A program made the position numbers and the translations under genes. From Subtercola sp. PAMC28395 (lineage in GTDB: Bacteria; Actinomycetota; Actinomycetes; Actinomycetales; Microbacteriaceae), in contig NZ_CP076547.1 of NCBI RefSeq assembly GCF_018889995.1, forward strand, positions 1,736,001-1,800,000: 64,000 bases of DNA, read 5' to 3'. This document shows, piece by piece, positions 933 to 27,256 of this stretch. The stretch's first letter is position 1; every line of letters begins with the position of its first letter. The notes beneath the pieces were generated by a model. The model did not search any database. It was not told the origin of the DNA and was given only the letters and a program-made list of their open reading frames with translations.

Positions 933-1829
933 GTGGGCACCCCAGCGTTCTTCGCGGTGTATGCCGTTGAAGGCATACCCGAGGTAGTGGCGGGCGATGA
1001 CCTCGCCGAACTCATCGGCAGTGCAATGGATTCCAGCGAACTGGTGCCCGAAGCCGGCGACATCCTGGTCGTCACGAGCAAGATCGTCTCCAAGGCCGAA
1101 GGTCGCAGTGTGCTGGCGGATGACCGTGAGGCTGCCATCACGGCCGAAACCGTTCGCGTGGTCGCCACCCGCGCGCACCCCGGTGGCGTGACGAGAATCG
1201 TCGAGAACCGGCAGGGGATCGTGCAGGCCGCAGCCGGGGTCGACTCCAGCAATACTCCCGCCGGTACGGTGCTCCTGCTGCCCGTCGACCCTGACGCGTC
1301 AGCACGAGCCATCGCAACCGCCCTCCGATCGCGATTCGGAGTCGAACTCGGGGTCGTCATCTCTGACACTCTCGGGCGGGCCTGGCGCGAGGGCCAGACC
1401 GACGCGGCGATCGGCTCTGCCGGTGTTCGCGTGCTCGACGACCTGCGTGGGGGCACCGACACCTTCGGGCAGCCCCTGATCGTCACCCAGATCGCGGTCG
1501 CCGACGAACTCGCTGCAGCTGGCGACCTGATCAAGGGCAAGGCGAGCGGCGTACCCGTGGCACTCGTCCGCGGGCTCTCGCACTACGTGACACCGTCGCT
1601 GGACACGCCCGCTCGCGCCCTGAACCGCACAGGGCCAGGCGACATGTTCCGGCTCGGCACCGATGAAGCGATCGACGAGGGATTCCAGAAGGGTCGTGCA
1701 GAGGGATTCGACGCGGCGTTCGCCGAGGGATTCGCCGCTGGCCGGGCCGCGGGACTCCGGGAGGAGCATGTCTCCGGGCGTACCACCGGGTCGACCGCGA
1801 ACGCAGGCGACGGAGCCACGGTCTCGTGA
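933..1829 (+). CDS. cofE: Coenzyme F420:L-glutamate ligase (CofE domain)
   Basis: This enzyme adds glutamate residues to F420-0 using GTP. The 298-residue product starts at a GTG right after the preceding stop. It shows the CofE blocks [15 protein letters not shown] (about residues 43-57), [21 protein letters not shown] (about 140-160) and [14 protein letters not shown] (about 197-210). It lacks the nitroreductase-like C-terminal domain fused to CofE in mycobacterial FbiB. Instead it ends in a Gly/Ala/Glu-rich tail with repeated [21 protein letters not shown] units (about 245-275). Its stop overlaps the cofC start by 4 bp, giving a tight cofE-cofC pair. Confidence 0.92.
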
Positions 1830-2482
1830 CGGGCTGGGTCGTGGTCGTACCCGTCAAGGGGTCGACGGAATCGAAGACCAGGCTTGCAGCCGCGTGGACC
1901 ATGGAGGCAGGCTTCAGCGGCGAGCAGCGCCGCGAGCTCGCGCTTGCTTTCGCCCTCGATGCGGTCACGGCCATCGCTGCCGCGGCAGAAGTGCGCGAGG
2001 TGATCGTCGTGACCGGGGATGCCGTCGCCGCAGTGGCGTTGGCTGGCCTGGGCGCGATTCTCGTGGACGATCCGCGCGCCGGGCTCAACGGGGCGATAAC
2101 CGCCGGAATCGCTGAAGCCCGCCTCCGTCACCCCGATGCGATGGTCGCCGCCATGACGGCAGACTTGCCCGCGCTGACCACCGCCGACGTCGAGGATGTG
2201 CTCGAGGCGGCAGCCGGGCATCCACTCGCCTTCGTGGCCGACGAACAGGGAACAGGCACGACGACCATCACCGCGAAGCCCGGAGTGACGGTGGTGCCGC
2301 GCTTCGGGCAGCATTCTGCGCACGCGCATGCCGACAGCGGCATGGTTCGACTCGTTGTGCGCTCGGGCTCCACGGCGAGACAGGATGTCGACACTCCTGA
2401 GGACCTGCATCGGCTGCGGGGGAGCTTCGGTCCCCATACGAGCCAGCTTCTTGCGCTTCAGAGTGCACCCCACTCTGGTTGA
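1826..2482 (+). CDS. cofC: 2-phospho-L-lactate/phosphoenolpyruvate guanylyltransferase (CofC/FbiD)
   Basis: CofC activates phospholactate or phosphoenolpyruvate with GTP to make the side-chain precursor of F420. The 218-residue protein begins [17 protein letters not shown], the N-terminal nucleotide-binding pattern of this family. It also carries MTADLPALT (about residues 110-118) and the late [14 protein letters not shown] block. The GTG start overlaps the cofE stop as GTGA, indicating translational coupling. Homologues act with CofD, encoded about 4 kb away on the other strand. The 3' end is convergent with the gene at 2609-3373. Confidence 0.9.
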
Positions 2483-6110: not shown

Positions 6111-7211
6111 TCAGCCGCGGGGCGGGAGCGTGCGGGCGGTGGCGCGGGCCGTGGCGAGTGCCGTCGCCGCGATGGCCGCCGTGTGCGCGACCGAGTTCAT
6201 CCACAGCGGGGTCGTCGTAACCGAGACGCCCGCGGCCTCGACCACGGCAGCCAGCGCGGCATCGGTGTCGTCGATGAGCCAGGCGTCGAGCACGCCTCCG
6301 CCTCGCCGGGCGCCGTAGTGGAAGGCCACAGCATCCGCCGCCGTTTCGACCCCGATCGCGCTGAGACAGGCGTGCGCCATACCCCGAACAGCCGCCCCGG
6401 AGATGATCGGCGAGACGCCGACGACCGGTGCCGCCGTTGCCTGAAGGGCGTCACGGATGCCCGGCACGGCCAGGATCGTATCGATCGAGACCACGGGGTT
6501 CGACGGCGCGAAGAGCACCACGTCGGCACCGGTGATGGCCTCGACCACTCCGGGAGCGGCGAGGGCGCTCTCGATGCCGTGCTGCTCGAAGCGCAGCGCG
6601 GGGAGAGTGGCGCGGTAGCGCACCCACCACTCCTCGAAGTGCATGGTACGTGTGCGGATTCCCGCATCAGCACCAGCGCCGGCAGCGGAGTCAGTGCCAC
6701 AGCCAGTGCCACCGCCAGTGCCTGTGCCAATCCCTGCGTCGGAATCGTCGGCGACCACGACGTGGGTCTCGACGGGCTGGTCGCTCATCGGCAGCAGCCG
6801 CACGCCGAGGTCCCAGCGGGCCGTGATCTGCGCCGTCGCCTCACTGAGAGTCAGACCCTCGCGCAGCAGGTGCGAGCGGGTGATGTGCGTGCCGAGGTCG
6901 AGGTCGCCGAGGGTGAACCACGGCCAGCCGACGCCGTAGGCCGTCAGCTCGGCACTGACGCGCTCAGACTCGCCGAGCCGGCCCCAGCCCCGTGTCTCGT
7001 CATTCGCGCCGCCGAGGGTGTACATGATCGAGTCGAGGTCGGGGCAGACCCGCAATCCCGTGAGCCACAGGTCGTCACCGGTGTTGACGACCACGGTGAC
7101 CTCAGCGGTGGTTCCGCCCACCCCGTCGGGCAGCGTCTCCCTGAGGTGTTCGCGCAGCCCCCGCAGAAACCTCGCCCCGCCAACGCCGCCAGCCAAAACC
7201 GTGATCTTCAC
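6111..7211 (-). CDS. cofD: 2-phospho-L-lactate transferase (CofD/FbiA)
   Basis: CofD transfers the phospholactyl or phosphoenolpyruvyl moiety to Fo, giving F420-0 (or dehydro-F420-0). The 366-residue product begins MKITVLAGGVGGARFLRGL, the family's nucleotide-binding start, followed by VVNTGDDLWLTGLRVCPDLD (about residues 41-60). Later blocks are FAPSNPVVSID and VGVSPIISG. A low-complexity Gly/Thr/Ala insert at about residues 157-186 interrupts the domain just before HFEEWW and is probably a surface loop expansion. It is 57 bp downstream of an LLM oxidoreductase on the same strand, so both are likely co-transcribed. Confidence 0.92.
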   Translation of the reverse strand: MKITVLAGGVGGARFLRGLREHLRETLPDGVGGTTAEVTVVVNTGDDLWLTGLRVCPDLDSIMYTLGGANDETRGWGRLGESERVSAELTAYGVGWPWFTLGDLDLGTHITRSHLLREGLTLSEATAQITARWDLGVRLLPMSDQPVETHVVVADDSDAGIGTGTGGGTGCGTDSAAGAGADAGIRTRTMHFEEWWVRYRATLPALRFEQHGIESALAAPGVVEAITGADVVLFAPSNPVVSIDTILAVPGIRDALQATAAPVVGVSPIISGAAVRGMAHACLSAIGVETAADAVAFHYGARRGGGVLDAWLIDDTDAALAAVVEAAGVSVTTTPLWMNSVAHTAAIAATALATARATARTLPPRG

Positions 7212-8195: not shown

Positions 8196-8502
8196 CGCTC
8201 CAGCGTACCCAGCCCTCTGCACAGTGCCCAGGAAGTAACACCATTCCGCGTCTCAAGAGCTGGGCTCGGCAGTCTGAAGCGTCGCCTGGATTGGGGTGGT
8301 GGCAGAGCGCTGACCTTCCAGGAGACAGCCGATTTGTGGTGGAGGCGTGCCGTGAGAGCTCGCCCGCCAACTTACCCCCCCCGTTATGGGGTCCATTTAG
8401 TGGATTCCTTGCCTGGATCGAGGTACGGTTCACGTGGAGAAGAAAGGTGAAGGAGCCCTCCTGACACCTCAGTGTCTTCTCGTATGAATACGGGGGTGTG
8501 CG
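8196..8502. other. Intergenic region upstream of the DUF3494 gene, with a hairpin
   Basis: No coding sequence is evident in these 307 bases, which lie between two divergent genes and so must carry both promoters. A short hairpin at 8446-8468 is built on AGGAG-CC-CTCCT flanked by GGTG and CACC, about 35 bases before the DUF3494 start. No convincing -35/-10 pair was identified. Confidence 0.5.
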
Positions 8503-10012: not shown

Positions 10013-11365
10013 TCAGGCGCGGGTCGCGCTCGCGAGGTGGGTCGCGATGTCGTCGAACTCACCCTTCACCAGGCCCGCCGTGACCCGAACGTGCTCACCC
10101 GCAGCCAGGCCCGCCGGCGCGGTGAAGGAGCTCGCCAAGAACGGGGTCCCGGCAGCGACGCGGATCCCGCTCGCCGCGAGTGAGACGATCGCCGCCTTCT
10201 CATCGGAGACGGGCAGCCAGAGGTTGATGCCGTCTGCGATGTCCAACTCCACGCCGTGCCGGGCCAACGCAGCACCGAGTTCGACCTGACGCAGCTGGTA
10301 CGTGCGCCGGGCCGCCGACACCTGCGCAACAGACTCGCGCGCCGTGAGGAGCTCGTAGAGAATGACCTGCAGCATTCTCGACGTCCAGCCCGGCCCGAGC
10401 ATCCGTCTCGCCACAATGCGGTCGATCAGGGCTGTCGGCCCGGCCAGAGCACCGATTCGCAGGTCGGGGCCGTGCGACTTTGCATAGCTGCGAACGTGCA
10501 GGGTGCGGTGGGGCAGCCAGGTGCCGATGCTCGTTGCCGGGGCTCCGCTGATTTCGCCCGAATGGTCGTCTTCGATGATCACAGGGTCGGTCAGGTGCGA
10601 GTGCGACCGCAGCAGGCCCACGAGTTCACGGGCGCGTTCCTCGGTCATCGTGGCGCCGGTCGGGTTCTGGGCCCTCGGCTGCAGGATGATCGCGGCAGGG
10701 TTCGACCGCAGAGCCGCCGCGAACGGGCCGGGCAGCATGCCGTGCCTGTCGATGGGCACAGCGACGCGCTCAGCACCGAGGTGCTCGAGCAGATCGAGAA
10801 AGGGAGGGAAACCGGGTTCTTCGATCACGACCCGGTCTCCGTAGCGGATCACCACCTCCAGTGAACGCGAGATGGCGTCGAGCGCACCGTCGGTGATGGT
10901 GAGCGATTCCGGGCTGTAGGGCCACGACGCCCGGAGGAGTCTCTCGAGCTCCGGCAGCACCCTGACGGTGAGGTAGCTGGTCGTGTCTGCGCGGGTGGGG
11001 AGGTGCTGGAAGGCCGCGGCGAGATCGGGAAGCAACTCCGGATCGGGTGTGCCTGTGGAGAGATCCAGGCGGCTCTGAACGTGCGAGCCGGCCAGCTCGG
11101 CGAAGTGCGTGGGCATCCAGCGGGTGCTCGCCTGGAGCACAAAGCTGCCTGCGCGCCCTCGCGAGGTGATCAGGCCGACGCCGGCCAGCGCCTGCCAGGC
11201 GTTCGAGACCGTAGCGGGGCTCACGCCGAGCTCTGATGCGAGTTCGCGAACCGTGGGGAGCCTGTCGCCTGAGGCGATGCCGCCGGTGCGGATCAGGCGC
11301 GAGACAGCGGCAGCGATACCCTCTGGCGACTTGTTCTCCACAGCCGCGACGATCTGCTCGATCAT
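10013..11365 (-). CDS. MocR/PdxR-type regulator (GntR HTH fused to aminotransferase-like domain)
   Basis: The 450-residue protein starts at the ATG 11365, which has AGAGGTG upstream; a GTG two codons earlier is less likely. Residues about 10-75 form a GntR winged helix (GDRLPTVRELASELGVSPATVSNAWQ). Residues about 95-445 form a fold-type I aminotransferase-like domain with PRAQNPTGATMT and a likely PLP lysine in SYAKSHGPDLRIG (about K295). It is divergent from the beta-ureidopropionase gene with 102 bp between starts, so it probably controls the pyrimidine genes. The effector could be PLP or its adduct with an amino compound such as beta-alanine (inference). Confidence 0.88.
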   Translation of the reverse strand: MIEQIVAAVENKSPEGIAAAVSRLIRTGGIASGDRLPTVRELASELGVSPATVSNAWQALAGVGLITSRGRAGSFVLQASTRWMPTHFAELAGSHVQSRLDLSTGTPDPELLPDLAAAFQHLPTRADTTSYLTVRVLPELERLLRASWPYSPESLTITDGALDAISRSLEVVIRYGDRVVIEEPGFPPFLDLLEHLGAERVAVPIDRHGMLPGPFAAALRSNPAAIILQPRAQNPTGATMTEERARELVGLLRSHSHLTDPVIIEDDHSGEISGAPATSIGTWLPHRTLHVRSYAKSHGPDLRIGALAGPTALIDRIVARRMLGPGWTSRMLQVILYELLTARESVAQVSAARRTYQLRQVELGAALARHGVELDIADGINLWLPVSDEKAAIVSLAASGIRVAAGTPFLASSFTAPAGLAAGEHVRVTAGLVKGEFDDIATHLASATRA

Positions 11366-11400
11366 GCACACCTCTTGACTTATTTACGCTCACGTCACAC

Positions 11401-11467: not shown

Positions 11468-12316
11468 ATGACGGTCATTCGAGCAGCAATTACCCAGACC
11501 ACGTGGACGGGCGACAAAGAGTCGATGATCGCCAAGCACGAGCAGTTCGCCCGCGACGCGGCGGCCGACGGAGCCCAGGTCATCTGCTTCCAGGAGCTCT
11601 TCTACGGCCCCTACTTCGGCATCACCGAAGATGCGAAGTACTACGCCTATGCCGAACCGGCCGACGGCCCGATCGTGCAGAAGTTCGCGGCGCTCGCGAA
11701 AGAACTGAACCTGGTCATGGTGCTGCCCATCTACGAGGAAGACATGCCGGGGGTCTACTACAACACCGCTGTCGTCGTCGACGCAGACGGCACGATTCTC
11801 GGCAAGTACCGCAAGAACCACATTCCGCACGTCGAGAAGTTCTACGAGAAGTTCTACTTTCGTCCGGGCAACCTCGGGTACCCTGTCTTCCAGACCGCGG
11901 TCGGCCCGATCGGCGTCTACATCTGCTACGACAGGCACTTCCCGGAGGGGTGGCGGGAACTCGGTCTGAACGGGGCTCAGATCGTCTTCAACCCGAACGC
12001 CACCAAGCCGGGTCTCTCCAACCGCTTGTGGGAGCTCGAGCAGCCTGCTGCTGCCGGTGCGAACGGTTACTTCGTCGCCGCGCCCAACCGCGTCGGCCTC
12101 GAAGACAACGAGTACGGTGACCTCGCTGTCAACTTCTACGGCAACAGCCAGTTCGCCGATCCGCAGGGCAACATCGTCGGTGAATACGGCAGTGGCGAGA
12201 ACGAGGAGATCGTCATCCGCGACCTCGATCTCGGTCTGGTGCGGGTTGCGCGCGACAACTGGCAGTTCTATCGCGACCGCAGGCCGGAGACGTACACGTC
12301 GATCCCCAAGCCGTAG
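11468..12316 (+). CDS. Nitrilase-superfamily beta-ureidopropionase (N-carbamoyl-beta-alanine amidohydrolase)
   Basis: This enzyme hydrolyses N-carbamoyl-beta-alanine to beta-alanine, CO2 and ammonia, the third step of reductive pyrimidine degradation. The 282-residue protein has the Glu-Lys-Cys triad of carbon-nitrogen hydrolases: E43 in FQELFYGPYF, K116 in YRKNHIP and C153 in YICYDRHFPEGWR. NPNATKPGLSNRLWELEQPAAA follows the nucleophile, typical of this subfamily. An AAAGGA motif lies 11 bases before the ATG. It is followed by dihydropyrimidinase, whose product is its expected substrate. N-carbamoylputrescine amidase is related, but the context points to pyrimidines. Confidence 0.88.
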   Translation: MTVIRAAITQTTWTGDKESMIAKHEQFARDAAADGAQVICFQELFYGPYFGITEDAKYYAYAEPADGPIVQKFAALAKELNLVMVLPIYEEDMPGVYYNTAVVVDADGTILGKYRKNHIPHVEKFYEKFYFRPGNLGYPVFQTAVGPIGVYICYDRHFPEGWRELGLNGAQIVFNPNATKPGLSNRLWELEQPAAAGANGYFVAAPNRVGLEDNEYGDLAVNFYGNSQFADPQGNIVGEYGSGENEEIVIRDLDLGLVRVARDNWQFYRDRRPETYTSIPKP

Positions 12317-12331
12317 ACACCTACCCCCAGT

Positions 12332-12367
12332 CGCTGGTTGAGTAGGCCCGAAGCGCCGTATCGAGAC
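12332..12367 (+). repeat. REP-like dispersed element, copy 1
   Basis: The sequence reads CGCTGGTTGAGTAGG, a CCGAAGCG core, then CCGTATCGAGAC. It shares its two ends with elements at 18959-18996 (opposite orientation) and 62831-62857. All three are short, intergenic and close to gene ends. Confidence 0.65.
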
Positions 12368-12426
12368 TGTGCTCAGCTGAACACGATTTCGACGAGCTCA
12401 TCAGCGACCATCGAAGGAGCAGTGCG

Positions 12427-13866
12427 ATGAAGACCCTCATCACCAACGGAACAGTTGTCAATGCCACGGGAACGGCCACGGCCGACGTGCTGATCGACGG
12501 GGAGACCATCGCTGCCGTGCTCGCGCCCGGCTCCAGGCTCCTGGGTTTCGACCTCGCCGGCAGCGTCGACCGGGTGATCGACGCGCGGGGCAAGTACGTG
12601 ATCCCCGGTGGCATCGATGCGCACACGCACATGCAGATGCCGTTCGGGGGCACAGAGGCCAGCGACACGTTCGAGACCGGCACGCGTGCGGCGGCGTGGG
12701 GCGGTACCACGAGCATCGTCGACTTCGTCGTGCAGTACGCGGGTGAGAACATCCTCGACCAGTACAACCTGTGGCACCAGAAGGCCGCCGGCCAGTGCGC
12801 GATCGACTACGGCTTCCACCAGATCCTGAGCGACGTGCAAGACAGTTCGCTGACGGCGATGGATGAACTGCTGAACGAGGGCGTCTCGAGCTTCAAGCTC
12901 TTCATGGCGTACAAGGGCGTCTTTCTCAGCGACGACGGCCAGATCGTCAAGGCGATGCAGCGTGCAAGCGAGAACGGCAGCCTGATGATGATGCACGCAG
13001 AGAACGGCAGCGTGATCGACCTGCTCGTGCAGCAGTCCATTGCGCGCGGCGACACCGCGCCATACTTCCACGGCACCACCAGGCCATGGCAGGCCGAAGA
13101 AGAGGCCACTCACCGCGCGATCATGCTGGCGAACCTCACCGGCGCACCGCTGTACATCGTGCATGTGAGCGCCAAGCAGGCCGTCGAGCAGATCGCGGTC
13201 GCCCGCGACCGCGGCCAGAACGTCTTCGCCGAAACCTGCCCGCAGTACCTGTACCTTTCGCTCGAAGAGCAACTCGGTGCCAGCAGCGAGCAGTGGGGTG
13301 ACTTCGAGGGTGCGAAGTGGGTGTGCTCGACACCGCTGCGTTCCCGGGCCGAGGGGCACCAGCATCACATGTGGCAGGGACTCCGCACGAACGACCTGCA
13401 GGTGATCTCCACCGACCACTGCCCGTTCTGCATGAAGGGCCAGAAAGACATGGGAATCGGAGACTTTTCGAAGATCCCCAACGGCATCGGTTCGGTCGAG
13501 CACCGCATGGACCTCATCTACCAGGGTGTGGTGATGGGGGAGATCAGCCTTCCACGCTGGGTCGAGCTCACCTCGACCACCCCGGCACGCATGTTCGGCA
13601 TGTACGGCAAGAAGGGCGTCATCCAGCCGGGCGCCGACGGTGACGTCGTCATCTACGACCCCAACGGCCACACCTCCATCGGCATGGGTGAGGGCAAGAA
13701 GAACCATATGAACATGGACTACGCCGCGTGGGAGGGTTTCGAGATCGATGGGCGCGTCGACACCGTGATCTCCCGGGGCAAGGTCATCGTCGACGACAAC
13801 CAGTACCTCGGCACGAAGGGTGACGGCAAGTACTTCAAGCGGGGCCTTTCGCAATACCTGATTTGA
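12427..13866 (+). CDS. hydA: Dihydropyrimidinase (D-hydantoinase)
   Basis: The enzyme opens 5,6-dihydrouracil or dihydrothymine to N-carbamoyl-beta-amino acids. The 479-residue protein has the binuclear-metal signature GGIDAHTHMQ (H66, H68), SSFKLFMAYKGV with the carboxylated lysine expected at K163, MMHAEN (H190), IVHVSAKQ and STDHCPF. The length is typical of the family. The ATG is preceded by GAAGGAG. It sits between beta-ureidopropionase and an LLM oxidoreductase, so three consecutive genes could cover reduction, ring opening and decarbamoylation. Confidence 0.93.
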   Translation: MKTLITNGTVVNATGTATADVLIDGETIAAVLAPGSRLLGFDLAGSVDRVIDARGKYVIPGGIDAHTHMQMPFGGTEASDTFETGTRAAAWGGTTSIVDFVVQYAGENILDQYNLWHQKAAGQCAIDYGFHQILSDVQDSSLTAMDELLNEGVSSFKLFMAYKGVFLSDDGQIVKAMQRASENGSLMMMHAENGSVIDLLVQQSIARGDTAPYFHGTTRPWQAEEEATHRAIMLANLTGAPLYIVHVSAKQAVEQIAVARDRGQNVFAETCPQYLYLSLEEQLGASSEQWGDFEGAKWVCSTPLRSRAEGHQHHMWQGLRTNDLQVISTDHCPFCMKGQKDMGIGDFSKIPNGIGSVEHRMDLIYQGVVMGEISLPRWVELTSTTPARMFGMYGKKGVIQPGADGDVVIYDPNGHTSIGMGEGKKNHMNMDYAAWEGFEIDGRVDTVISRGKVIVDDNQYLGTKGDGKYFKRGLSQYLI

Positions 13867-13873
13867 GCCATAA

Positions 13874-13900
13874 GCGACGCGGGTTCCCGCCCGGCGTCGC
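13874..13900 (+). terminator. Intra-operon hairpin after hydA
   Basis: GCGACGC (13874-13880) and GCGTCGC (13894-13900) are perfect 7-bp arms, with GGG and CCC inside the loop able to extend pairing. The hairpin starts 8 bases after the hydA stop and is not followed by a T-run. It could be an attenuator or mRNA-stabilising structure that sets different expression of hydA and the downstream genes. Confidence 0.5.
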
Positions 13901-13941
13901 GTAGGAAACTCCACCAACCTTCGCCCAACAGAAAGAACCCC

Positions 13942-14958
13942 ATGGAATTCGGAGCAGTTCTCCAGACGCACCCGCCGGCGTCGCGCACGCTTGCGCTGGC
14001 CAAGCTCGCCGAGCAGCACGGATTCGACTACGCCTGGACCTTCGACTCGCACCTGCTCTGGCAGGAACCGTACGTCATCTACAGCCAGATCCTGAACGAG
14101 ACCCACCGCATCAAGGTGGGCCCGATGGTCACGAACCCTGCGACCCGCGACTGGACGGTCACCGCCTCGATCTTCGCCACGCTGAACGAGATGTACGGCA
14201 ACCGCACCATCTGCGGCATCGGCCGCGGCGATTCGGCGGTGCGTGCCACCAATGGCGCACCCACGACGCTCAAGACCCTGCGTGAGTCGATCCATGTCAT
14301 CCGCGAGCTGGCGAACAGCAGGCCTGTCGAATACAACGGAGCCACCGTGCAGTTCCCGTGGAGCCGCGGCTCCGAACTCGAAGTCTGGGTGGCTGCGTAC
14401 GGGCCCCTCGCGCTGAAGCTCACCGGCGAAGTCGGTGACGGCTTCATCCTCCAGCTGGCCGATCTCGACATCGCCGAATGGATGATCGGGGTCGTTCGCA
14501 AGGCGGCCGAGAATGCGGGCCGCGACCCCATGTCGATCAAGTTCTGCGTCGCAGCCCCCATGTACATCGGCGACGACTGGGAGCACATGCGGGAGCAGTG
14601 CCGCTGGTTCGGAGGCATGGTGGGCAACCACGTCGCCGACATCGTCTCGAAGTACGGCACCGATTCGTCTGTACCCACGGCGCTCACCGACTACATCAAG
14701 GCCCGCGAGGGCTACGACTACAATGAACACGGCCAGGCCGGCAACACTCACGCCGCCTTCGTGCCAGACGAGATCGTCGACCGCTTCTGCCTGCTCGGCA
14801 CCGCAGAACAGCACATCGAGAAACTCAAAGCACTCAAAGAACTCGGCGTCGACCAGTTCGCCGGGTATCTCCAGCACGACAACAAAGAAGAGACGCTCCG
14901 CGTCTACGGAGAGACGGTCATCCCGACCCTCAGAGACCACATCACGGCCACCGCATGA
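13942..14958 (+). CDS. LLM-class F420-dependent oxidoreductase in the pyrimidine locus (TIGR03842-like)
   Basis: The 338-residue protein resembles methylene-tetrahydromethanopterin reductase-like LLM enzymes. It has MEFGAVLQT at the N-terminus, DYAWTFDSHLLWQEPYV (about residues 29-45), VGPMVTNPATRDWTVTAS (about 56-73), GIGRGDSAVR (about 92-101) and WVAAYGPLALKLTGEVGDGF. The GRGDSAVR block is typical of the Mer-related branch that uses F420. Its stop overlaps the first transporter permease by 4 bp. No dihydropyrimidine dehydrogenase is encoded nearby, so this enzyme is a candidate for the missing uracil/thymine reduction. That role is inference; the family call is solid. Confidence 0.85.
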   Translation: MEFGAVLQTHPPASRTLALAKLAEQHGFDYAWTFDSHLLWQEPYVIYSQILNETHRIKVGPMVTNPATRDWTVTASIFATLNEMYGNRTICGIGRGDSAVRATNGAPTTLKTLRESIHVIRELANSRPVEYNGATVQFPWSRGSELEVWVAAYGPLALKLTGEVGDGFILQLADLDIAEWMIGVVRKAAENAGRDPMSIKFCVAAPMYIGDDWEHMREQCRWFGGMVGNHVADIVSKYGTDSSVPTALTDYIKAREGYDYNEHGQAGNTHAAFVPDEIVDRFCLLGTAEQHIEKLKALKELGVDQFAGYLQHDNKEETLRVYGETVIPTLRDHITATA

Positions 14959-15863
14959 GCGATCGCACCTCAGGCAGGCCAGAGTCGAGAGGGTCGGCGC
15001 GCATCAGCGCCCTCGTCTGGGGTCTGGTCGGCCTGATCGTGCTCGTCGTGCTGTGGGAGGGGTACAAGGCCTTCGGGCCGGCCTCCGGCGTGCAACTGTT
15101 CGACACGAGCATCCTGCCTCGTACAGACGACCGCTCGATGCCTCACCTGCTCGCGATGGTGCAGCGTGCGCTCGAACCGGTGAACTCCTCTGCCGGGTCA
15201 CAGGCGGTCTGGGTCGCGGTGGTTGCGGCTGCACTGACCAGCCTCGGCGTGGCAGCTGTGGGCTGGGCGATCGGCTCGGTGGTGGGGTTTCTGCTGGCAC
15301 TGCTCATGCAACGCCTGCAGGTCGCTGAACGCGCCGTTCTGCCGTGGCTGATTCTGAGCCAGACCGTGCCGCTGATCGCCCTCGCACCCGTGATCGTGGC
15401 CTGGGGCGGAAAGATCCAGATCGGTGCCTTCTCCTGGGACAGGTGGATGTCGGTGGCCGTCATCGCCTCCTACCTCGCGTTCTTCCCGGTGGCGGTGGGG
15501 GCGCTCCGCGGCCTGCAGTCACCCGACACCATCCACGTCGAGCTGATGCACACGTACAATGCCGGGTGGTTCAAGACCCTGCTTCACCTTCGGCTACCCG
15601 CCAGCGTGCCCTTTCTCCTGCCGGCCCTCCGTCTGGGTGCTGCGAGCGCGATCGTCGGTACGGTCGTCGCCGAGGTCTCCACCGGGTACAAGGGCGGAAT
15701 CGGGCGCATGATCATCGAATTCGCCCAATCTGGCACCTCCGACCCCGCCAAGGCCTACGCCCCGATCGCGGGCGCCGTAATCCTGGGGCTGGCCTCTGCA
15801 GGGCTTGTCGCGCTGCTCGGGCTCGCCCTCAAACGCTTCAACCGCCAGGAGGCGTCATCGTGA
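14955..15863 (+). CDS. ABC transporter permease (NitT/TauT/Thi-type), pyrimidine locus
   Basis: A 302-residue inner-membrane permease with about six hydrophobic helices. The binding-protein-dependent transport motif appears around residues 180-235 (AVGALRGLQSPDTIHVELMH.YNAG.FKTLLHLRLPASVPFLLPALRLGA). The ATG overlaps the preceding stop and its own stop overlaps the ATPase start as GTGA. It pairs with a second, different permease two genes downstream, suggesting a heterodimeric channel. With the THI5-like binding protein at 17664 it probably imports a pyrimidine or related heterocycle. Confidence 0.88.
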   Translation: MSDRTSGRPESRGSARISALVWGLVGLIVLVVLWEGYKAFGPASGVQLFDTSILPRTDDRSMPHLLAMVQRALEPVNSSAGSQAVWVAVVAAALTSLGVAAVGWAIGSVVGFLLALLMQRLQVAERAVLPWLILSQTVPLIALAPVIVAWGGKIQIGAFSWDRWMSVAVIASYLAFFPVAVGALRGLQSPDTIHVELMHTYNAGWFKTLLHLRLPASVPFLLPALRLGAASAIVGTVVAEVSTGYKGGIGRMIIEFAQSGTSDPAKAYAPIAGAVILGLASAGLVALLGLALKRFNRQEASS

Positions 15864-16702
15864 CCGACAGTACCCAGGCCCCGGCCGCACCGATCACCGC
15901 CGAGCCTGCCATCGTCGTCAGCGGGGCCAACAAGATCTTCCAGGTCGCCAAGGGCGCCGAAGTCCGGGCGCTCGACGACATCAACCTCTCCGTCGCTCCC
16001 GGCGAATTCGTCTCGCTGATCGGGCCGTCCGGGTGTGGCAAGAGCACACTGCTCCGCCTGATTGCCGACCTCGACACGGCAACCAGCGGCGACATCAGCG
16101 TGTTCGGCAAGACAGCCCGGCAGGCACGCATCGACCAGGAGTACGGAATCGCGTTCCAGAGCGCCGGGCTGCTTCCCTGGCGCACGGTTCAGGCCAACAT
16201 CGAGTTGCCCCTCGAACTCCACGGCATCGGCAAGGCCGAGCGGGCCGCTCGCGCCGAAGAGCTCATCGAACTCGTCGGCCTCACGGACTTCCGGTCGCGC
16301 TTCCCCGACCAGCTCTCCGGCGGCATGCAGCAGCGAGTCGCCATCGCCCGGTCGCTGGCCGAACGCCCGAAGCTCCTCCTGATGGATGAGCCGTTCGGTG
16401 CGCTCGACGAGATGACCAGGGAGCGCATGCAGCAGGAACTCGTGCGCATCTGCTCCGAAACGGGTGCTGCTGTAGTCTTTGTCACCCACTCGATCCCTGA
16501 GGCGGTCTTCCTCTCCGACCGGGTGGTCGTCATGTCTCCCCGCCCGGGGCGGATCGTCGACATCGTCGACATCGACCTGGGCCCCGGCACCGAGCGCAGC
16601 GAGGTTCTCCGAGATAATCCCGCCTACTACGCCGGCGTCATCGCCGTTCGCGAGGCGCTGCACGGCCGTGCAGCCGCTCCTCTGGGGGCTGATCTCCGAT
16701 GA
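15860..16702 (+). CDS. ABC transporter ATP-binding protein, pyrimidine locus
   Basis: The 280-residue ATPase starts at a GTG overlapping the upstream permease stop. It has Walker A GPSGCGKST (about residues 54-62), a Q-loop in AFQSAGLLPWRT, signature LSGGMQQR (about 150-157), Walker B LLLMDEPFGALD and an H-loop in FVTHSIPEAV. This layout is typical of nitrate/taurine/thiamin-precursor importers. Stop-start overlaps on both sides show a compact transporter operon. Confidence 0.92.
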   Translation: MTDSTQAPAAPITAEPAIVVSGANKIFQVAKGAEVRALDDINLSVAPGEFVSLIGPSGCGKSTLLRLIADLDTATSGDISVFGKTARQARIDQEYGIAFQSAGLLPWRTVQANIELPLELHGIGKAERAARAEELIELVGLTDFRSRFPDQLSGGMQQRVAIARSLAERPKLLLMDEPFGALDEMTRERMQQELVRICSETGAAVVFVTHSIPEAVFLSDRVVVMSPRPGRIVDIVDIDLGPGTERSEVLRDNPAYYAGVIAVREALHGRAAAPLGADLR

Positions 16703-17571
16703 CCAGCGAACGGGTCACGGCCCTGGCCGGGCCTTCTTCGCCTCTGGTCGCGGCGCTTCCCGGCGAATCGGTATCTCCGGTCGCAGCACAGGGCGGTGCC
16801 ACGCGCGGACAAGGAGGCCGGTGGATCGCCAGGTCGATCGTTCCTCCGCTCGTTCTGGGCCTCGCGTTCCTCCTGCTCTGGCAGCTTGCCGTGCTCGCGT
16901 TCGACATCAAGCCCTATCTGCTGCCGAGCCCGACCGACATCGCCGGCCAACTCGTCACTGTCTTTCCGTTGCTCTGGTCGTCGATGCTCGCGACAGGCCT
17001 CAATGCCCTGATTGGAGTCGTCGTCGGCGGCCTGCTCGCGGTCGTGCTGGCACTCCTGGCCTCCCGCCTCACGATCTTGGACCGGATGATCGTGCCGATC
17101 GTGGCGGGAATCGCCGTCGTGCCCATTGTCGCCGTCGCACCCATCCTGAACACGATGTTCGGCTCCACCTCTGACACTCCCAGGCGCATCGTCGTGCTGA
17201 TCGTCGTCTTCGCGCCCATCTTCATCAACACCCTGCGGGGGCTTCGCCAGGTGAGGCCGGTGCACCGCGATCTCATGCGGGCGTACGCGGCATCCGACTG
17301 GCAGCTGACCCGAACAGTCACACTGCCGGGCGCTGTGCCGTTCATCTTCACCGGGCTGCGCATCGCTGCGCCTCTCGGGGTCATCTCCGCCATCGTGGCC
17401 GAATACTTCGGCGGGCTTCAGAACGGCCTCGGTTCGCGCATCACCTCTGCCGCGGCCAACAGCGCCTACCCCCGTGCCTGGGCCTATGTGTTCGGAGCGA
17501 TCGTGCTCGGGCTCGTCTTCTACGGCGCGAGCCTGCTCCTCGAACGGCTCGCCACCCGGCGGCGTGCCTGA
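16699..17571 (+). CDS. Second ABC transporter permease, pyrimidine locus
   Basis: The 290-residue permease overlaps the ATPase gene by 4 bp. After an N-terminal extension of about 45 polar residues it has a transmembrane helix (VLGLAFLLLWQLAVLAF), a further set of helices and the EAA-like loop INTLRGLRQVRPVHRDLMRAYAASDWQ (about residues 175-200). It is clearly distinct from the permease at 14955, so this importer appears to use two different membrane subunits rather than a homodimer. Confidence 0.88.
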   Translation: MTSERVTALAGPSSPLVAALPGESVSPVAAQGGATRGQGGRWIARSIVPPLVLGLAFLLLWQLAVLAFDIKPYLLPSPTDIAGQLVTVFPLLWSSMLATGLNALIGVVVGGLLAVVLALLASRLTILDRMIVPIVAGIAVVPIVAVAPILNTMFGSTSDTPRRIVVLIVVFAPIFINTLRGLRQVRPVHRDLMRAYAASDWQLTRTVTLPGAVPFIFTGLRIAAPLGVISAIVAEYFGGLQNGLGSRITSAAANSAYPRAWAYVFGAIVLGLVFYGASLLLERLATRRRA

Positions 17572-17663
17572 CCTGCATCATCCGCGTGTCGCGCCATCCA
17601 CAGCGCACCCCTGAACCGCAACACCCACAGCACCACTGCACCACCTATCTGATGGAGGAACAG

Positions 17664-18815
17664 ATGAAACACGGCAAACGCATCACCCTCGGCGTGGCGG
17701 CCATCGCCGCGTCGGCAGCACTCGTACTCTCGGGCTGCTCGAGTTCGTCGAGCACCCCGGCACCCTCGGCGACCGCGGGGGCGCTGACGCCAGTGAAACT
17801 GCAATTGCAGTGGTTCACCCAGGCACAGTTCGCCGGGTACTACGCCGCGCTCGACCAGGGCTACTTCAAGGACCAGGGCCTCGACGTCACCATCGTCGAG
17901 GGTGGCACCGACATCGTGCCGCAGACCCAGCTCGCCGATGGCGCAGTCGACTACGCCGTGGCCTGGGTACCCAAGGCGCTGGCCTCCCGAGAGCAGGGCG
18001 CCGGCATCACCGACGTTGCTCAGATCCTCCAGAAATCCGGCACACTGCAGGTCTCCATGGCAGCCAAGAACATCACGACTTCGGCCGATCTCAAGGGCAA
18101 GGTCGTCGGCAACTGGGGCTATGGCAACGAGTTCGAGATGTTCGCCGGTATCACCAAGGCAGGCCTCGACCCGGCGAAAGACGTCTCTCTCGTGCAGCAG
18201 AACTTCGACGAGGCGGGTCTTCTCGACGGTTCCATCGATGCGGCACAGGCGATGACGTACAACGAGTACGCGCAGATCCTCGAGACGATGAACCCGGCAA
18301 CCGGCAAGCTATACCAGCCCAGTGACCTCAACGTCATCAACTGGAACGACGAGGGAACGGCAATGCTCCAGGATGCGATCTGGGCGAACACCGACAAACT
18401 GAAGAACGACCAGGCGTACCAGGCCACGACGGTCAAGTTCCTGACGGCCGCACTGAAAGGCTGGATCTACGCACGCGACAACCCCCAGAAGGCTGCAGAC
18501 ATCGTGGTGGCCAAGGGCTCGCAACTCGGTGCCAGTCACCAGCTGTGGCAGACCAACGAGATCAACAAGCTGATCTGGCCGTCACCCGACGGCATCGGAA
18601 TCATCGACACAGCGGCCTGGAAGCAGACCGTCGACGTTGCAATGACAGCGAAGAACCTCGAAGGAACCACGGTCATCACCAAGGCACCTGACGCAGATGC
18701 GTACGACAACACCTACGTGCAGAAGGCGCTCGACGCACTTAAGGCCGACGGTGTCGACACCACCGGCACGTCATTCAAACCGATCACCGTCACCCTCACC
18801 GAGGGCGGCAAGTAA
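17664..18815 (+). CDS. ABC substrate-binding lipoprotein, NMT1/THI5-like
   Basis: The ATG at 17664 is chosen because GGAGGA lies 5-10 bases upstream and a lipoprotein signal follows (MKHGKR, hydrophobic core, lipobox LSGCS around residues 24-28). The 383-residue lipoprotein has LQLQWFTQAQFAGYYAALDQGYFKDQGLDVTIVEGG, the fingerprint of THI5/ThiY-type proteins that bind pyrimidine-like ligands. It would capture a pyrimidine, or a related compound, outside the membrane and deliver it to the two permeases encoded just upstream. The ligand is inferred from the neighbouring catabolic genes. Confidence 0.9.
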   Translation: MKHGKRITLGVAAIAASAALVLSGCSSSSSTPAPSATAGALTPVKLQLQWFTQAQFAGYYAALDQGYFKDQGLDVTIVEGGTDIVPQTQLADGAVDYAVAWVPKALASREQGAGITDVAQILQKSGTLQVSMAAKNITTSADLKGKVVGNWGYGNEFEMFAGITKAGLDPAKDVSLVQQNFDEAGLLDGSIDAAQAMTYNEYAQILETMNPATGKLYQPSDLNVINWNDEGTAMLQDAIWANTDKLKNDQAYQATTVKFLTAALKGWIYARDNPQKAADIVVAKGSQLGASHQLWQTNEINKLIWPSPDGIGIIDTAAWKQTVDVAMTAKNLEGTTVITKAPDADAYDNTYVQKALDALKADGVDTTGTSFKPITVTLTEGGK

Positions 18816-18816
18816 G

Positions 18817-18918
18817 CGAGCGCGGCGGGGCGGCTTGAACAGCCGCTCCGCTTTTAGCGCGGCGCGTCGAGCGCGGCGGGGTGGCCTGAACGGCCACTCC
18901 GCTTAAAGCGCGGCGCGA
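18817..18918 (+). repeat. Two tandem 51-bp hairpin units with compensatory base changes
   Basis: Unit 1 is 18817-18867 and unit 2 is 18868-18918. Each folds as a stem of about 11 bp around the loop TGAAC. Unit positions 15 and 29 are C/G in unit 1 and T/A in unit 2; positions 19 and 25 are T/A in unit 1 and C/G in unit 2. Both substitutions therefore keep pairing. A short T-run (CTTTTAG) follows the first stem. A tandem terminator behind the transporter operon is the likely role. Confidence 0.75.
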
Positions 18919-18958
18919 GGCGTACGAAACCCGTTCACAGACTGTCGTCCGGCGGGCG

Positions 18959-18996
18959 GGTTTCGATACGCTCCTCTCGGAGCTACTCAACCAGCG
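18959..18996 (-). repeat. REP-like dispersed element, copy 2
   Basis: On the minus strand it reads CCGCTGGTTGAGTAGCTCC, then GAGAGGAGCGTATCGAAACC, with the inner GCTCCGAGAGGAGC able to form a hairpin. It matches the ends of the copy at 12332-12367. It is located 35 bases upstream of the aminotransferase start. Confidence 0.7.
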
Positions 18997-19030
18997 GCAC
19001 CACACCCACGAACAGACAAGGCACCACACC

Positions 19031-20359
19031 GTGAACCTCTCACCCGAAGACGGGCAGCTCGCCTACGAACTCGACCGCGCGCACGTCTTCCACTCCTGGT
19101 CTGCGCAGGCCGCACTCAAGCCCATGGTCATCGCCGGCGGGCTCGGCAGCACCGTCTGGGACTTCGACGGCAACGAACTGCTCGACTTCTCGAGCCAGCT
19201 CGTCAACGTGAACATCGGGCACCAGCATCCGGCAGTGGTCGCCGCCATCCAGGCGCAGGCCGACATTCTGGCCACGGTGGCTCCGGCACACGCCAACCTC
19301 GCCCGCGGGCAGGCGGCCCAGCGCATCCTCGAGCGAGCGGGTAGCGAGTTCAGCAAGGTCTTCTTCACCAACGGGGGAGCCGACGCGAACGAGAACGCCA
19401 TGCGTATGGCGCGCCTGTACACGGGCCGCGACAAAGTGCTCTCGACCTATCGCTCGTACCACGGCAACACCGGTTCGGCCGTCGTCGCCACGGGGGACTG
19501 GCGTCGTGTGCCGAACGAGTACGCCCGCGCACACGTGCACTTCTTCGGCCCGTTCTCGTACCGTTCGGAGTTCTGGTCGACGACCCCCGAAGAAGAGTCG
19601 GCCAGGGCGCTCCATCACCTCGAGCGAGTCATTCAGGCCGAGGGCCCTTCGTCGATCGCGGCGATCCTGATCGAGACGATTCCCGGCACAGCCGGCGTGC
19701 TGGTTCCGCCGCCCGGCTACCTCGCCGGCGTACGCGCTCTTGCCGACAAATACGGCATCGTGCTGATCTTCGATGAAGTGATGTGCGGCTTCGGTCGAAC
19801 CGGCGGCTGGTTCGCGTTCCAGTCGCTCAGCGAGGGGGGCGAGCCGGTGATCCCTGACCTCATCACCTTCGCCAAGGGAGTGAACTCGGGGTACGTGCCG
19901 GTGGGCGGCGTCATCATTCCGCCGTTCATCGCGGATGTCTTCGACGAGCAGGTGTTCCCGGGCGGCCTGACGTACTCCGGGCATCCACTCGCCATGGCGT
20001 CGATCGTCGGTGCACTCGACGCGATGCAGAACGAGGGCATCGTCGACAACGCGGCGCGTGTCGGGGCCGACGTGATCGGGCCGGGCCTCAGGGCGCTCGC
20101 AGAGAAGCACGAGGCGATCGGAGAGGTTCGCGGCCTCGGTGTCTTCTGGGCACTCGACCTCGTGGCCGACCCGGTGACCCGCGAGCCGCTCTCACTGGCC
20201 ACGATCGGCGTTCTGAAGGCGAAACTGCTCTCGCTCGGGCTCCTGCCGTTCTTCGCCGACAATCGCCTCCACGTGGTCCCTCCGTGCGTCGTCACCGACG
20301 CCGAGGTTGCTCGCGCGCTCGCGATCTACGACGAGGCCTTCACCGCCGTGTTCGCGTAG
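19031..20359 (+). CDS. Class-III PLP-dependent aminotransferase (probable beta-alanine/omega-amino acid transaminase)
   Basis: The 442-residue enzyme starts at a GTG. It has the class-III features VWDFDGNELLDFSSQLVNVNIGHQHPAVV, FFTNGGADANENAMRMAR, TYRSYHGNT, LIFDEVMCGFGRTG and the PLP lysine in TFAKGVNSGYVPVGG (about K281). It lies after the pyrimidine transporter on the same strand, so removal of the amino group from beta-alanine to give malonic semialdehyde is the expected role. It may instead act on beta-aminoisobutyrate or another omega-amino acid. The SD is weak. Confidence 0.88.
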   Translation: MNLSPEDGQLAYELDRAHVFHSWSAQAALKPMVIAGGLGSTVWDFDGNELLDFSSQLVNVNIGHQHPAVVAAIQAQADILATVAPAHANLARGQAAQRILERAGSEFSKVFFTNGGADANENAMRMARLYTGRDKVLSTYRSYHGNTGSAVVATGDWRRVPNEYARAHVHFFGPFSYRSEFWSTTPEEESARALHHLERVIQAEGPSSIAAILIETIPGTAGVLVPPPGYLAGVRALADKYGIVLIFDEVMCGFGRTGGWFAFQSLSEGGEPVIPDLITFAKGVNSGYVPVGGVIIPPFIADVFDEQVFPGGLTYSGHPLAMASIVGALDAMQNEGIVDNAARVGADVIGPGLRALAEKHEAIGEVRGLGVFWALDLVADPVTREPLSLATIGVLKAKLLSLGLLPFFADNRLHVVPPCVVTDAEVARALAIYDEAFTAVFA

Positions 20360-20518: not shown

Positions 20519-21466
20519 ATGGACGTGCGCCGGCTCGAACTGCTTCGTGAGCTCGCCGAGCGTGGCAGCATCACCGAAGTGGCGAAGGCCACCCACCGCA
20601 CCCCCTCCGCTGTCTCGCAGCAACTCCGCGTACTCGAGCGTGAGGCAGGGCTGCCGCTCACCGAGAAGGCGGGCCGCGGTATCGTGCTCACCGATGCCGG
20701 TCGTGCCCTCGCCCGAAGCGCTGCCGACGTGGCCGTAGCGATCGAACGAGCTGATGCACTGTGGGACGAGTTCCGCCACGATCCCACCGGTGAGGTCTCC
20801 CTCGCGACCTTTCCCACCGGTGGCCAGATGCTGCTTCCCGGGGTGCTGCACCGCCTGGCCCGGCAGAGCGGCCTCACACTGCACGCGAGTGATCGCGACC
20901 CCATCTCCGAGGCCTTCCCCGAGCTCACGAACGATTTCGACATCGTGATCGCCCACGCGCCGACCCGGCCGCCGTCGATGTGGCTGGGCAGGGGCCTGAG
21001 CATCGTGCACCTGATGACAGAGCCCCTCGACGTGGCACTGCCGTTCGGGCATCCGCTCGACTCTGCAGCCAGCGTCACGCCGGCCGACCTGATCGGCGAG
21101 CAGTGGATCGGCGTGCCCTGGGGGTACCCGTTCGAGCGCACCCTGTACGACATCTCTGCCGCTGCCGGCGCCCCCGTCAACATCGTGCAGCGTTTCGCTG
21201 ACACCCGCGTGACAGAAGCCCTCGTCTCCGCAGGCCTCGGCGTCGCCATCCTTCCGCGGTACACCGCAGGCGGCGCCTACCTGACCTCCAGCGCCATGTC
21301 GCAGCGCATCTCCCTCAAGCCTCTCTCCGGTGTGCGTGCCGAGCGCCACATCTACGCACTCATGCGACCCGACCGGGCCGAGCGTCTCGCCGTTCGCACG
21401 GTGGTGGATGCCCTGCGAGCCGAATCCGACGCAATCACTGTGGCCAACCCGACGACCGCCCCCTGA
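20519..21466 (+). CDS. LysR-family transcriptional regulator
   Basis: The 315-residue protein begins with a LysR winged helix (MDVRRLELLRELAERGSITEVAKATHRTPSAVSQQLRVLEREAG, residues 1-45). The periplasmic-binding-like effector domain spans about 90-300 (VSLATFPTGGQMLLPGVLHRL; VALPFGHPLDSAASVTPADLIGEQWIG). It follows the aminotransferase on the same strand with 159 bp between them and precedes housekeeping genes. It may regulate the pyrimidine or aminotransferase genes, but no divergent target or operator is visible. Confidence 0.87.
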   Translation: MDVRRLELLRELAERGSITEVAKATHRTPSAVSQQLRVLEREAGLPLTEKAGRGIVLTDAGRALARSAADVAVAIERADALWDEFRHDPTGEVSLATFPTGGQMLLPGVLHRLARQSGLTLHASDRDPISEAFPELTNDFDIVIAHAPTRPPSMWLGRGLSIVHLMTEPLDVALPFGHPLDSAASVTPADLIGEQWIGVPWGYPFERTLYDISAAAGAPVNIVQRFADTRVTEALVSAGLGVAILPRYTAGGAYLTSSAMSQRISLKPLSGVRAERHIYALMRPDRAERLAVRTVVDALRAESDAITVANPTTAP

Positions 21467-27222: not shown

Positions 27223-27256
27223 AACACTTGTTGCGTATACTGGCATTCTGAAACAC
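27209..27256 (+). promoter_or_regulatory. Promoter and TGAAACAC repeats upstream of the pucG-like gene
   Basis: TGAAACAC occurs three times, at 27209-27216, 27220-27227 and 27249-27256. A -10 candidate TATACT lies at 27236-27241, so the third repeat would cover the transcription start. The RpiR-type regulator encoded at the end of this operon is the likely ligand of such repeats (inference). No strong -35 hexamer is seen, which would suit an activated promoter. Confidence 0.5.

What the first reader, a model, noticed from the sequence alone, without database searches (positions are those of the whole stretch)
11468..20359. Reductive pyrimidine locus without dihydropyrimidine dehydrogenase; LLM/F420 enzyme may replace it
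Beta-ureidopropionase, dihydropyrimidinase, a THI5-like importer and a class-III transaminase cover import and steps 2-4 of reductive pyrimidine degradation. The first step (uracil to dihydrouracil) normally needs a PydA/PreAT-type dehydrogenase, and none is encoded anywhere in the window. Instead a Mer-like LLM oxidoreductase (13942-14958) sits between hydA and the importer, overlapping the permease by 4 bp. F420 biosynthesis genes lie 4-10 kb away. An F420H2-dependent uracil/thymine reductase would be a distinct version of the pathway.
Basis: partly seen in the sequence, partly recalled or inferred. Interest (0 to 1): 0.75.

Follow-up and report, generated by a model that had tools for sequence, protein, structure and literature searches.

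The report
F420 enzyme starting pyrimidine breakdown
A small enzyme that very probably uses the rare cofactor F420 appears to stand in, in this bacterium and in many others, for the classic enzyme that starts the breakdown of the bases uracil and thymine, which would also help explain why many bacteria make F420.

Summary
Observation confirmed. Window 11468-20359 encodes a beta-ureidopropionase-like hydrolase, dihydropyrimidinase, a TIGR03842 LLM oxidoreductase, an NMT1-type importer and a class-III transaminase. The genome's only DHO_dh match looks like PyrD, so no PydA/PreA was found; cofC, cofD and cofE lie 4-11 kb away. Of 296 genomes of the phylum, 62 carry this LLM: 61 have dihydropyrimidinase, 60 cofE, none PreA over cut-off. 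In Proteobacteria (Leisingera, Paracoccus denitrificans, Halomonas, Marinomonas) it ends cofGHDCE-npdG operons, often beside hydA, NCS1 or N-carbamoyl hydrolase genes. In the genus of a Devosia, LLM and PreA replace each other: of 65 hydA+ genomes 53 have only the LLM, 10 only PreA, 2 both, none neither. Two sister species share a collinear pyd operon differing by 3 kb that holds preT-preA. Best model: an F420H2-dependent dihydropyrimidine dehydrogenase unrelated to PydA. No assay exists here; 8 of 39 proteobacterial LLM genomes also keep PreA, and 27 of 89 hydA+ genomes of the phylum have neither. Ten literature searches (lists capped) showed no paper stating this function.

The parts
933..1829 (+). 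cofE-type F420-0:glutamate ligase
   Evidence: TIGR01916 224.3 bits over cut-off 180.65
1826..2482 (+). cofC-type guanylyltransferase of F420 synthesis
   Evidence: TIGR03552 142 bits over cut-off 105
6111..7211 (-). cofD-type transferase of F420 synthesis
   Evidence: TIGR01819 318.5 bits over cut-off 257.45
10013..11371 (-). MocR-like regulator, divergent from the pyd genes; homologues in 7 of 60 related stretches
11468..12316 (+). nitrilase-superfamily N-carbamoyl hydrolase, probable beta-ureidopropionase (step 3)
   Evidence: PF00795; TIGR03381 243.6 bits, below its cut-off 410.25; best solved-structure matches N-carbamoylputrescine amidohydrolase 5h8i and CG3027-PA 2vhh, then beta-ureidopropionase 8pt4
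12427..13866 (+). dihydropyrimidinase hydA (step 2)
   Evidence: TIGR02033 539.9 bits over cut-off 393.25
13942..14958 (+). TIGR03842 LLM oxidoreductase, proposed F420H2-dependent dihydropyrimidine dehydrogenase (step 1)
   Evidence: 591.9 bits over cut-off 295.45; AlphaFold model pLDDT 86.4, Foldseek ranks 1-8 all Mer; genomic swap with PreA in relatives
14955..15863 (+). ABC permease 1
   Evidence: PF00528
15860..16702 (+). ABC ATPase
   Evidence: PF00005
16699..17571 (+). ABC permease 2
   Evidence: PF00528
17586..18815 (+). NMT1/THI5-type substrate-binding protein, probable pyrimidine importer
   Evidence: PF09084; tblastn homologues in 8 of the 9 Devosia-genus stretches that hold hydA, PreA-type operons among them
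19031..20359 (+). class-III aminotransferase, probable beta-alanine transaminase (step 4)
   Evidence: PRK06062 717.8 bits over cut-off 472; nearest solved structure 6jix, taurine:2-oxoglutarate aminotransferase
20519..21466 (+). LysR-type regulator, membership of the unit not tested
   Evidence: weak NCBIfam match to GltC, 85 of 350 bits

Best explanation
The LLM protein (13942-14958, TIGR03842) is very probably an F420H2-dependent dihydropyrimidine dehydrogenase. It takes hydride from F420H2 and reduces the C5=C6 bond of uracil (probably thymine too) to the dihydropyrimidine. HydA then opens the ring, the nitrilase-type hydrolase releases beta-alanine or beta-aminoisobutyrate, and the transaminase with MMSDH enzymes elsewhere in the genome completes breakdown. 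The ABC importer brings in the base or a precursor. Shown: the gene content, no PydA found in the genome, the linkage, and the reciprocal replacement with PreA in relatives. Inferred: the reaction, the cofactor, the substrate range and the importer's cargo.
For: (1) Own genome: one DHO_dh match, PyrD by its sequence; two MMSDH over cut-off. (2) 296 genomes of the phylum: LLM over cut-off in 62, hydA in 61 of those, cofE in 60, PreA in 0; LLM and hydA lie within 20 kb in 52 of the 54 genomes that have both on one contig, over 14 family codes. (3) In 60 fetched stretches (from 50 of the 62 LLM genomes and 4 genomes without it), at 45% identity or more to one representative each: M20 carbamoylase in 19, NCS1 permease in 17, MMSDH in 17; NMT1 binding protein in 17. 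(4) Proteobacteria: cofGHDCE-npdG-LLM stands divergent to NCS1-hydA-Zn hydrolase-aminotransferase in Leisingera and near NCS1-hydA-M20 in P. denitrificans; of 80 loci 71 have a cof gene in the held flank, 40 a hydA/M20/nitrilase-type gene, 0 preA/preT. (5) Genus of Devosia G324, 68 genomes: of 65 with hydA, 53 LLM only, 10 PreA only, 2 both, 0 neither; Fisher p 3.7e-10, ignoring kinship; at least 6 changes of LLM and 7 of PreA on an rpoB tree of 29, no independent pair going the same way. (6) Sisters G508/G534: collinear operon at 86-93% DNA identity, 3.0 kb with preT-preA in one against 60 bp in the other, which has cofE and the LLM on another contig; G541 against G534 agrees. (7) Control G196: hydA-M20-PreA-PreT without the LLM over cut-off. 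(8) Fold nearest to F420 enzymes: Mer, Adf, FGD2, FGD1 fill Foldseek ranks 1-16.
Against: No biochemical evidence. 8 of 39 proteobacterial genomes with the LLM also carry PreA over cut-off (40 of the 80 loci were given, one not held), and 2 of 56 LLM+ genomes of the Devosia genus do. Of 89 hydA+ genomes of the phylum, 28 lack the LLM and 27 of these lack PreA too, so hydA alone is no marker of pyrimidine breakdown; one fetched example, L091, has BUP and HYD homologues and its genome no LLM over cut-off. G194 (LLM+) lacks hydA, and G115 and G232 lack cofE; all three are assemblies of about 190 contigs or more. Genome G519 of the Devosia genus has the LLM and no hydA hit. In the 13 Devosia-type loci the LLM is not near hydA. 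Of the 80 proteobacterial loci, 9 have no cof gene and 40 no hydA/M20/nitrilase-type gene in the held flank. Independent pairs on supported branches were only 3, too few for significance.
Confidence: 0.88

Rival explanations
1. The LLM acts later in the pathway, for example as an F420-linked reductase or dehydrogenase of malonate semialdehyde (Adf-like), and step 1 is done by an unknown enzyme.
For: F420-dependent alcohol dehydrogenase Adf shares the fold (1rhc, rank 9); aminotransferase or MMSDH genes lie near the LLM in part of the loci.
Against: In the compared Devosia-genus stretches both states keep hydA, M20, MMSDH and AT; what differs is preT-preA. A later-step enzyme would not be expected to swap with the step-1 enzyme.
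Confidence: 0.03
2. A flavin monooxygenase that opens or oxidises the pyrimidine ring, in the manner of RutA.
For: RutA is recalled to be an LLM protein of uracil catabolism; FMN enzymes of the same superfamily appear further down the fold list.
Against: The protein matched 25 NCBIfam families at E up to 0.001, all listed, and RutA is not among them. The loci keep hydA and N-carbamoyl hydrolase, which act on reduced rings, and F420 genes accompany the LLM in 60 of 62 genomes of the phylum and 71 of 80 proteobacterial loci.
Confidence: 0.02
3. An F420H2 reductase of another cyclic imide or pyrimidine (hydantoin derivative, methylated or halogenated uracil), with uracil or thymine not the main substrate.
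For: hydA-family enzymes and NCS1/NMT1 importers serve several cyclic amides (recalled; TIGR02033 bears the name D-hydantoinase); the window enzyme is only 43-44% identical to the two Devosia rows.
Against: The swap with PreA, whose family is named NAD-dependent dihydropyrimidine dehydrogenase, and the linkage to MMSDH and to an AptA-type omega-aminotransferase fit uracil and thymine.
Confidence: 0.07

Closest known systems
PydA/PreTA dihydropyrimidine dehydrogenase
   Same: Same proposed reaction and pathway place; the two replace each other in the genus of Devosia G324.
   Different: PreA has the DHO_dh fold and a partner PreT, with FMN, Fe-S clusters and NAD(P)H (partly recalled; PMC7332683 abstract in a listing mentions FMN and NAD(P)H sites). 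The LLM is a single Bac_luciferase-fold protein with no DHO_dh domain and a likely F420H2 donor.
Ferredoxin-dependent PydA of Clostridium chromiireducens (PMC7332683, start of abstract seen in a listing)
   Same: A variant of step 1 with another electron donor.
   Different: Still called a PydA; the LLM has no PydA domain.
Methylenetetrahydromethanopterin reductase Mer
   Same: Nearest characterised relative by sequence and fold; shares 38 of the 78 residues invariant in a 37-row family alignment.
   Different: Scores 143-147 bits against Mer cut-offs of 276-349; position 6, where a Mer E6Q mutant was solved (8qq8), is Val here; family-specific invariant blocks at 222-235 and 255-264.
Putative F420-dependent yanthine reductase of Chloroflexota uricolytic clusters (PMC12507026, passages read)
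   Same: A PF00296 protein proposed to replace a reductase in a reductive nucleobase pathway.
   Different: Purine-derived substrate and another gene set; proposed there from gene neighbourhood. I did not compare sequences.
NpsU / SSGG-03002 of dihydro-uridyl antibiotics (PMC10714638, passages read)
   Same: Putative F420/FMN-dependent oxidoreductase shown by genetics and NMR to be responsible for reducing uracil C5=C6 in mureidomycins.
   Different: Acts in antibiotic biosynthesis; the authors saw no product in vitro. The passages do not tell whether it is an LLM protein, and I did not compare sequences.

Membership tests
TIGR03842 LLM family | profile score over the curated cut-off | tested here: met
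   591.9 against 295.45 bits
F420-dependent LLM enzymes | host carries F420 synthesis genes | tested here: met
   cofE, cofC and cofD over cut-off in the window; cofG/cofH (FbiC) were not searched in the own genome
F420-dependent LLM enzymes | protein binds and uses F420 rather than FMN | not testable with these tools
   only linkage and fold similarity support it
Mer | equivalog cut-off of TIGR03555 or PRK02271 | tested here: not met
   143.2 of 348.7 and 146.7 of 276 bits
PydA/PreA | DHO_dh domain PF01180 | tested here: not met
   only PF00296 found in the LLM protein
RutA | match to a RutA profile | tested here: not met
   not among the 25 NCBIfam families found at E up to 0.001
reductive pyrimidine degradation pathway | dihydropyrimidinase | tested here: met
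   TIGR02033 over cut-off
reductive pyrimidine degradation pathway | beta-ureidopropionase | tested here: inconclusive
   right superfamily, no equivalog cut-off reached
reductive pyrimidine degradation pathway | beta-alanine transaminase and MMSDH | tested here: inconclusive
   PRK06062 aminotransferase in the locus; two MMSDH over cut-off elsewhere in the genome; substrates unproven
dihydropyrimidine dehydrogenase activity | reduces uracil or thymine to the dihydro form | not testable with these tools
   inferred from the PreA swap

The most novel reading that the evidence does not exclude
TIGR03842 is a new, PydA-unrelated class of dihydropyrimidine dehydrogenase driven by F420H2. Feeding it is a main reason why many Proteobacteria keep F420 biosynthesis. 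Devosia-type bacteria instead hold a cassette of cofE, Peripla_BP_2, FecCD, ATPase and the LLM that may import an F420 precursor and finish it for this one enzyme.
Probability: 0.35. Interest if true: 0.92.

Novelty: new variant of a known kind. Interest (0 to 1): 0.85.

Why it matters
It gives a testable function to a widespread family that NCBIfam still types as a hypothetical equivalog. It offers the missing first step of pyrimidine breakdown in a phylum where PreA reached its cut-off in only 2 of 296 genomes. It also bears on a question that a 2021 review leaves open, namely why Proteobacteria make F420 (PMC8498797, outlook passage and section 23): P. denitrificans, reported there as a trace producer with a possibly niche-specific role, carries the cof-npdG-LLM genes close to hydA and shows no PreA.

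Tried and rejected
Rejected readings: a Mer enzyme (below cut-off); a RutA-like monooxygenase (no profile match); a late-step F420 dehydrogenase (operon comparison).

Led nowhere: the first ORF caller gave shadow ORFs in GC-rich DNA, replaced; cluster counts used loose links, so I recounted at 45% identity (M20 fell from 24 to 19 stretches). Two rpoB trees were wrong because loci from the genome search are not turned to the gene's strand; only one search counts, with 29 of 30 genomes (G526 had no rpoB match). One search scanned a 20-residue piece by mistake. A class-wide sample of 144 genomes around P. denitrificans held the LLM only in that genome itself, so the family is rare there; PreA was not surveyed on that set. 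Searching 1.2 of 3.29 Mb of one genome (G530) for cofG/H/D/C found none, but cofE and the LLM lie outside that part too, so it says nothing. No pocket analysis with bound F420 was done. RutA, PreT and FbiC were not searched in the own genome.

Literature: ten searches. TIGR03842 found 0 papers and a four-term query found 0. The others: 12 papers listed, none holding the word dihydropyrimidinase; 3; 1; 15 of 111 listed; 15 of 18 listed; 3; 8 of 100 listed; 3. Only three papers were opened (PMC12507026, PMC10714638, PMC8498797, in passages and one section); the rest I know from titles and abstract starts. No preprints and few subscription papers are held, so the function may be in print elsewhere.
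Full report
What is there. The window belongs to a single-contig genome of 3,214,492 bp. Its LLM protein is 96% identical to one named for Subtercola vilae, so the organism is probably a Subtercola relative and its phylum Actinomycetota (the rank placement is recalled; the tool does not name it). On the plus strand from 11468 lie a nitrilase-superfamily hydrolase, dihydropyrimidinase, the LLM protein, a four-gene ABC importer with an NMT1/THI5 binding protein, and a class-III aminotransferase. A MocR-like regulator is divergent upstream. The LLM protein scores 591.9 bits on TIGR03842, typed as a hypothetical equivalog, cut-off 295.45. F420 genes are close: cofE and cofC at 933-2482 and cofD at 6111-7211.

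No classical step 1. A search of the whole genome with PF01180 found one match; I read its sequence as a quinone-type PyrD. The PreA profile gives at best E 2.3e-10 in this genome and is not over its cut-off. The partner PreT was not searched.

Survey of the phylum. In 296 genomes drawn evenly, TIGR03842 is over cut-off in 62, dihydropyrimidinase in 89, cofE in 170 and PreA in 2. Of the 62, 61 have hydA and 60 have cofE; 0 have PreA, by comparing the lists. The Fisher p-values of 4e-40 (hydA) and 1.5e-14 (cofE) ignore kinship; the 62 fall into 14 family codes. Where both genes are on one contig (54 genomes), LLM and hydA are within 20 kb in 52, within 7 kb in 49 and within 300 bp in 22. Against the reading: 28 hydA+ genomes lack the LLM over cut-off, and only one of them, G196, has PreA. 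That one is informative: its operon is hydA, M20 hydrolase, PreA and a PreT-like protein. The other 27 have neither step-1 enzyme, so their hydA may serve other substrates or they use something else again.

Gene content of related loci. Sixty stretches were fetched, from 50 of the 62 LLM genomes and from 4 genomes without the LLM. At 45% identity or more to one representative each, 19 hold an M20 carbamoylase, 17 an NCS1 nucleobase permease and 17 CoA-acylating methylmalonate-semialdehyde dehydrogenase (two of the stretches are overlapping pieces of one genome, and the M20 count includes the PreA control G196); 17 hold the NMT1 binding protein. Representatives of the first three pass curated profiles: TIGR01879, TIGR00800 and TIGR01722. 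These are expected later steps and transporters of uracil and thymine breakdown. The window genome has two MMSDH genes elsewhere.

Proteobacteria. Plasmid records show the pattern most clearly. In Leisingera caerulea and L. aquaemixtae, NCS1 - hydA - Zn hydrolase - aminotransferase - transhydrogenase genes stand divergent to cofG-cofH-cofD-cofC-cofE-npdG-LLM. The L. caerulea aminotransferase scores 749.9 on AptA, cut-off 500. Paracoccus alcaliphilus has cofGHDCE-npdG-LLM followed by an NMT1 importer. A cof gene is within the held flank in 71 of 80, a hydA, M20 or nitrilase-type gene in 40 of 80, and preA or preT in 0 of 80. Four LLM proteins from these groups, tested singly, score 481-509 bits on TIGR03842, cut-off 295. 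npdG is annotated as NADPH-dependent F420 reductase, so NADPH to F420 to pyrimidine is a plausible electron path.

Does it replace PreA? For 40 of the 80 loci I asked for PreA in the whole genome; 39 were held, 8 have PreA over cut-off and 31 do not. The eight include both Leisingera and both Limimaricola genomes searched. So the two enzymes can coexist. The sharper test is within one genus, that of G324 (Devosia sp. by the title of L157). Of 68 genomes, 56 have the LLM, 12 have PreA and 65 have hydA. By comparing the lists, the 65 hydA+ genomes are 53 LLM only, 10 PreA only, 2 both and 0 neither; Fisher p 3.7e-10 without regard to kinship. The two genomes with neither enzyme (G526, G539, 2.6 and 2.0 Mb) also lack hydA; G519 has the LLM and no hydA hit. 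An rpoB tree of 29 of these genomes (10 without and 19 with the LLM, chosen by me) needs at least 6 changes for the LLM and 7 for PreA, and in no independent pair do they go the same way; only 3 pairs rest on well-supported branches, so the sign test cannot reach significance.

A natural exchange. G508 and G534 are sisters on that tree with 100/99 support. Their pyd operons (binding protein, hydA, M20, MMSDH, AT, TetR) align at 86-93% DNA identity. In G508 the stretch between two aligned blocks is 3.0 kb and contains preA (735.9 bits) and preT; in G534 the same gap is 60 bp, and this genome has the LLM with cofE on another contig. The far anchor is only 71 bp in G508, near its contig end; the comparison of G541 with G534 gives the same picture with a 1.5 kb anchor at 83% (3.6 kb holding preT-preA against 0.5 kb). 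The direction of change is not known.

Structure and sequence. The AlphaFold model (pLDDT 86.4, pTM 0.87) matches Mer at Foldseek ranks 1-8, then F420-dependent alcohol dehydrogenase, FGD2 and FGD1, before the first FMN luciferase at rank 17 (TM-scores 0.7-0.8). In a 37-row alignment 78 positions are invariant, of which 38 are shared with Mer of M. jannaschii; invariant blocks that differ from Mer lie at 222-235 and 255-264. These are candidates for the pyrimidine site; I did not model ligands, and part of this region (about 231-270) has modest confidence in the model.

Known or new. Papers seen in passages: PMC12507026 proposes an F420-dependent luciferase-family protein as yanthine reductase in Chloroflexota uric acid breakdown; PMC10714638 reports that a putative F420/FMN oxidoreductase reduces uracil C5=C6 in mureidomycins, without in vitro activity; PMC8498797 (passages and section 23) says that in bacteria outside the Actinobacteria no F420 reductase or F420-reducing dehydrogenase had been investigated experimentally by 2021, and asks why Proteobacteria make F420. 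I saw no paper assigning TIGR03842 to pyrimidine breakdown; the ten searches and their capped lists are told in Tried and rejected. Uracil reduction itself is known; the enzyme family and donor would be new, so I class it as a new variant of a known kind.

Side finding. In 13 of 13 Devosia-type named loci (Devosia, Pelagibacterium and related assemblies) and in one further genome (L211, G534), cofE, a Peripla_BP_2 binding protein, a FecCD permease and an ATPase are clustered with the LLM (order varies: in three loci the LLM comes first), and no cofG, cofH, cofD or cofC is within the held flanks. An F420-precursor importer is a possible reading; whether the other cof genes are elsewhere in these genomes is not settled (one search is uninformative).

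Verdict. I put 0.88 on the LLM being an F420H2-dependent dihydropyrimidine dehydrogenase. What is missing is one enzyme assay and one deletion.

Noticed in passing
L157-L167, L170, L174 and L211:5141-9804: cofE, Peripla_BP_2, FecCD and ABC ATPase genes clustered with the LLM in Devosia-type genomes, without the other cof genes in the held flanks: possible import of an F420 precursor.
   Followed up: partly
window 26119-30734: Formamidase-like protein (weak match), class-V aminotransferase, M20 allantoate amidohydrolase (521.5 bits over cut-off 479) and a regulator-like ORF: a second nitrogen-compound catabolic cluster close by.
   Followed up: no
window 32-931 and 7269-8222 (minus): Two further LLM-family proteins near the cof genes, one over the cut-off of the F420 G6P family (TIGR03557, 257.1 against 210.4 bits), one below all cut-offs listed.
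   Followed up: no
L096: Record titled Nocardioides marinus carries a Leisingera-like cof-LLM locus (LLM 98% identical); probably a mislabelled or contaminated assembly.
   Followed up: no
L209, L212, L220: NMT1-type binding protein homologues lie beside hydA in PreA-type operons of the Devosia genus too, so that importer is not confined to the F420 variant.
   Followed up: partly
G206:C1:2193491-2194476 and G208:C1:121370-122355: The LLM match is split into two neighbouring pieces in two genomes, which suggests a frameshift or an assembly error.
   Followed up: no
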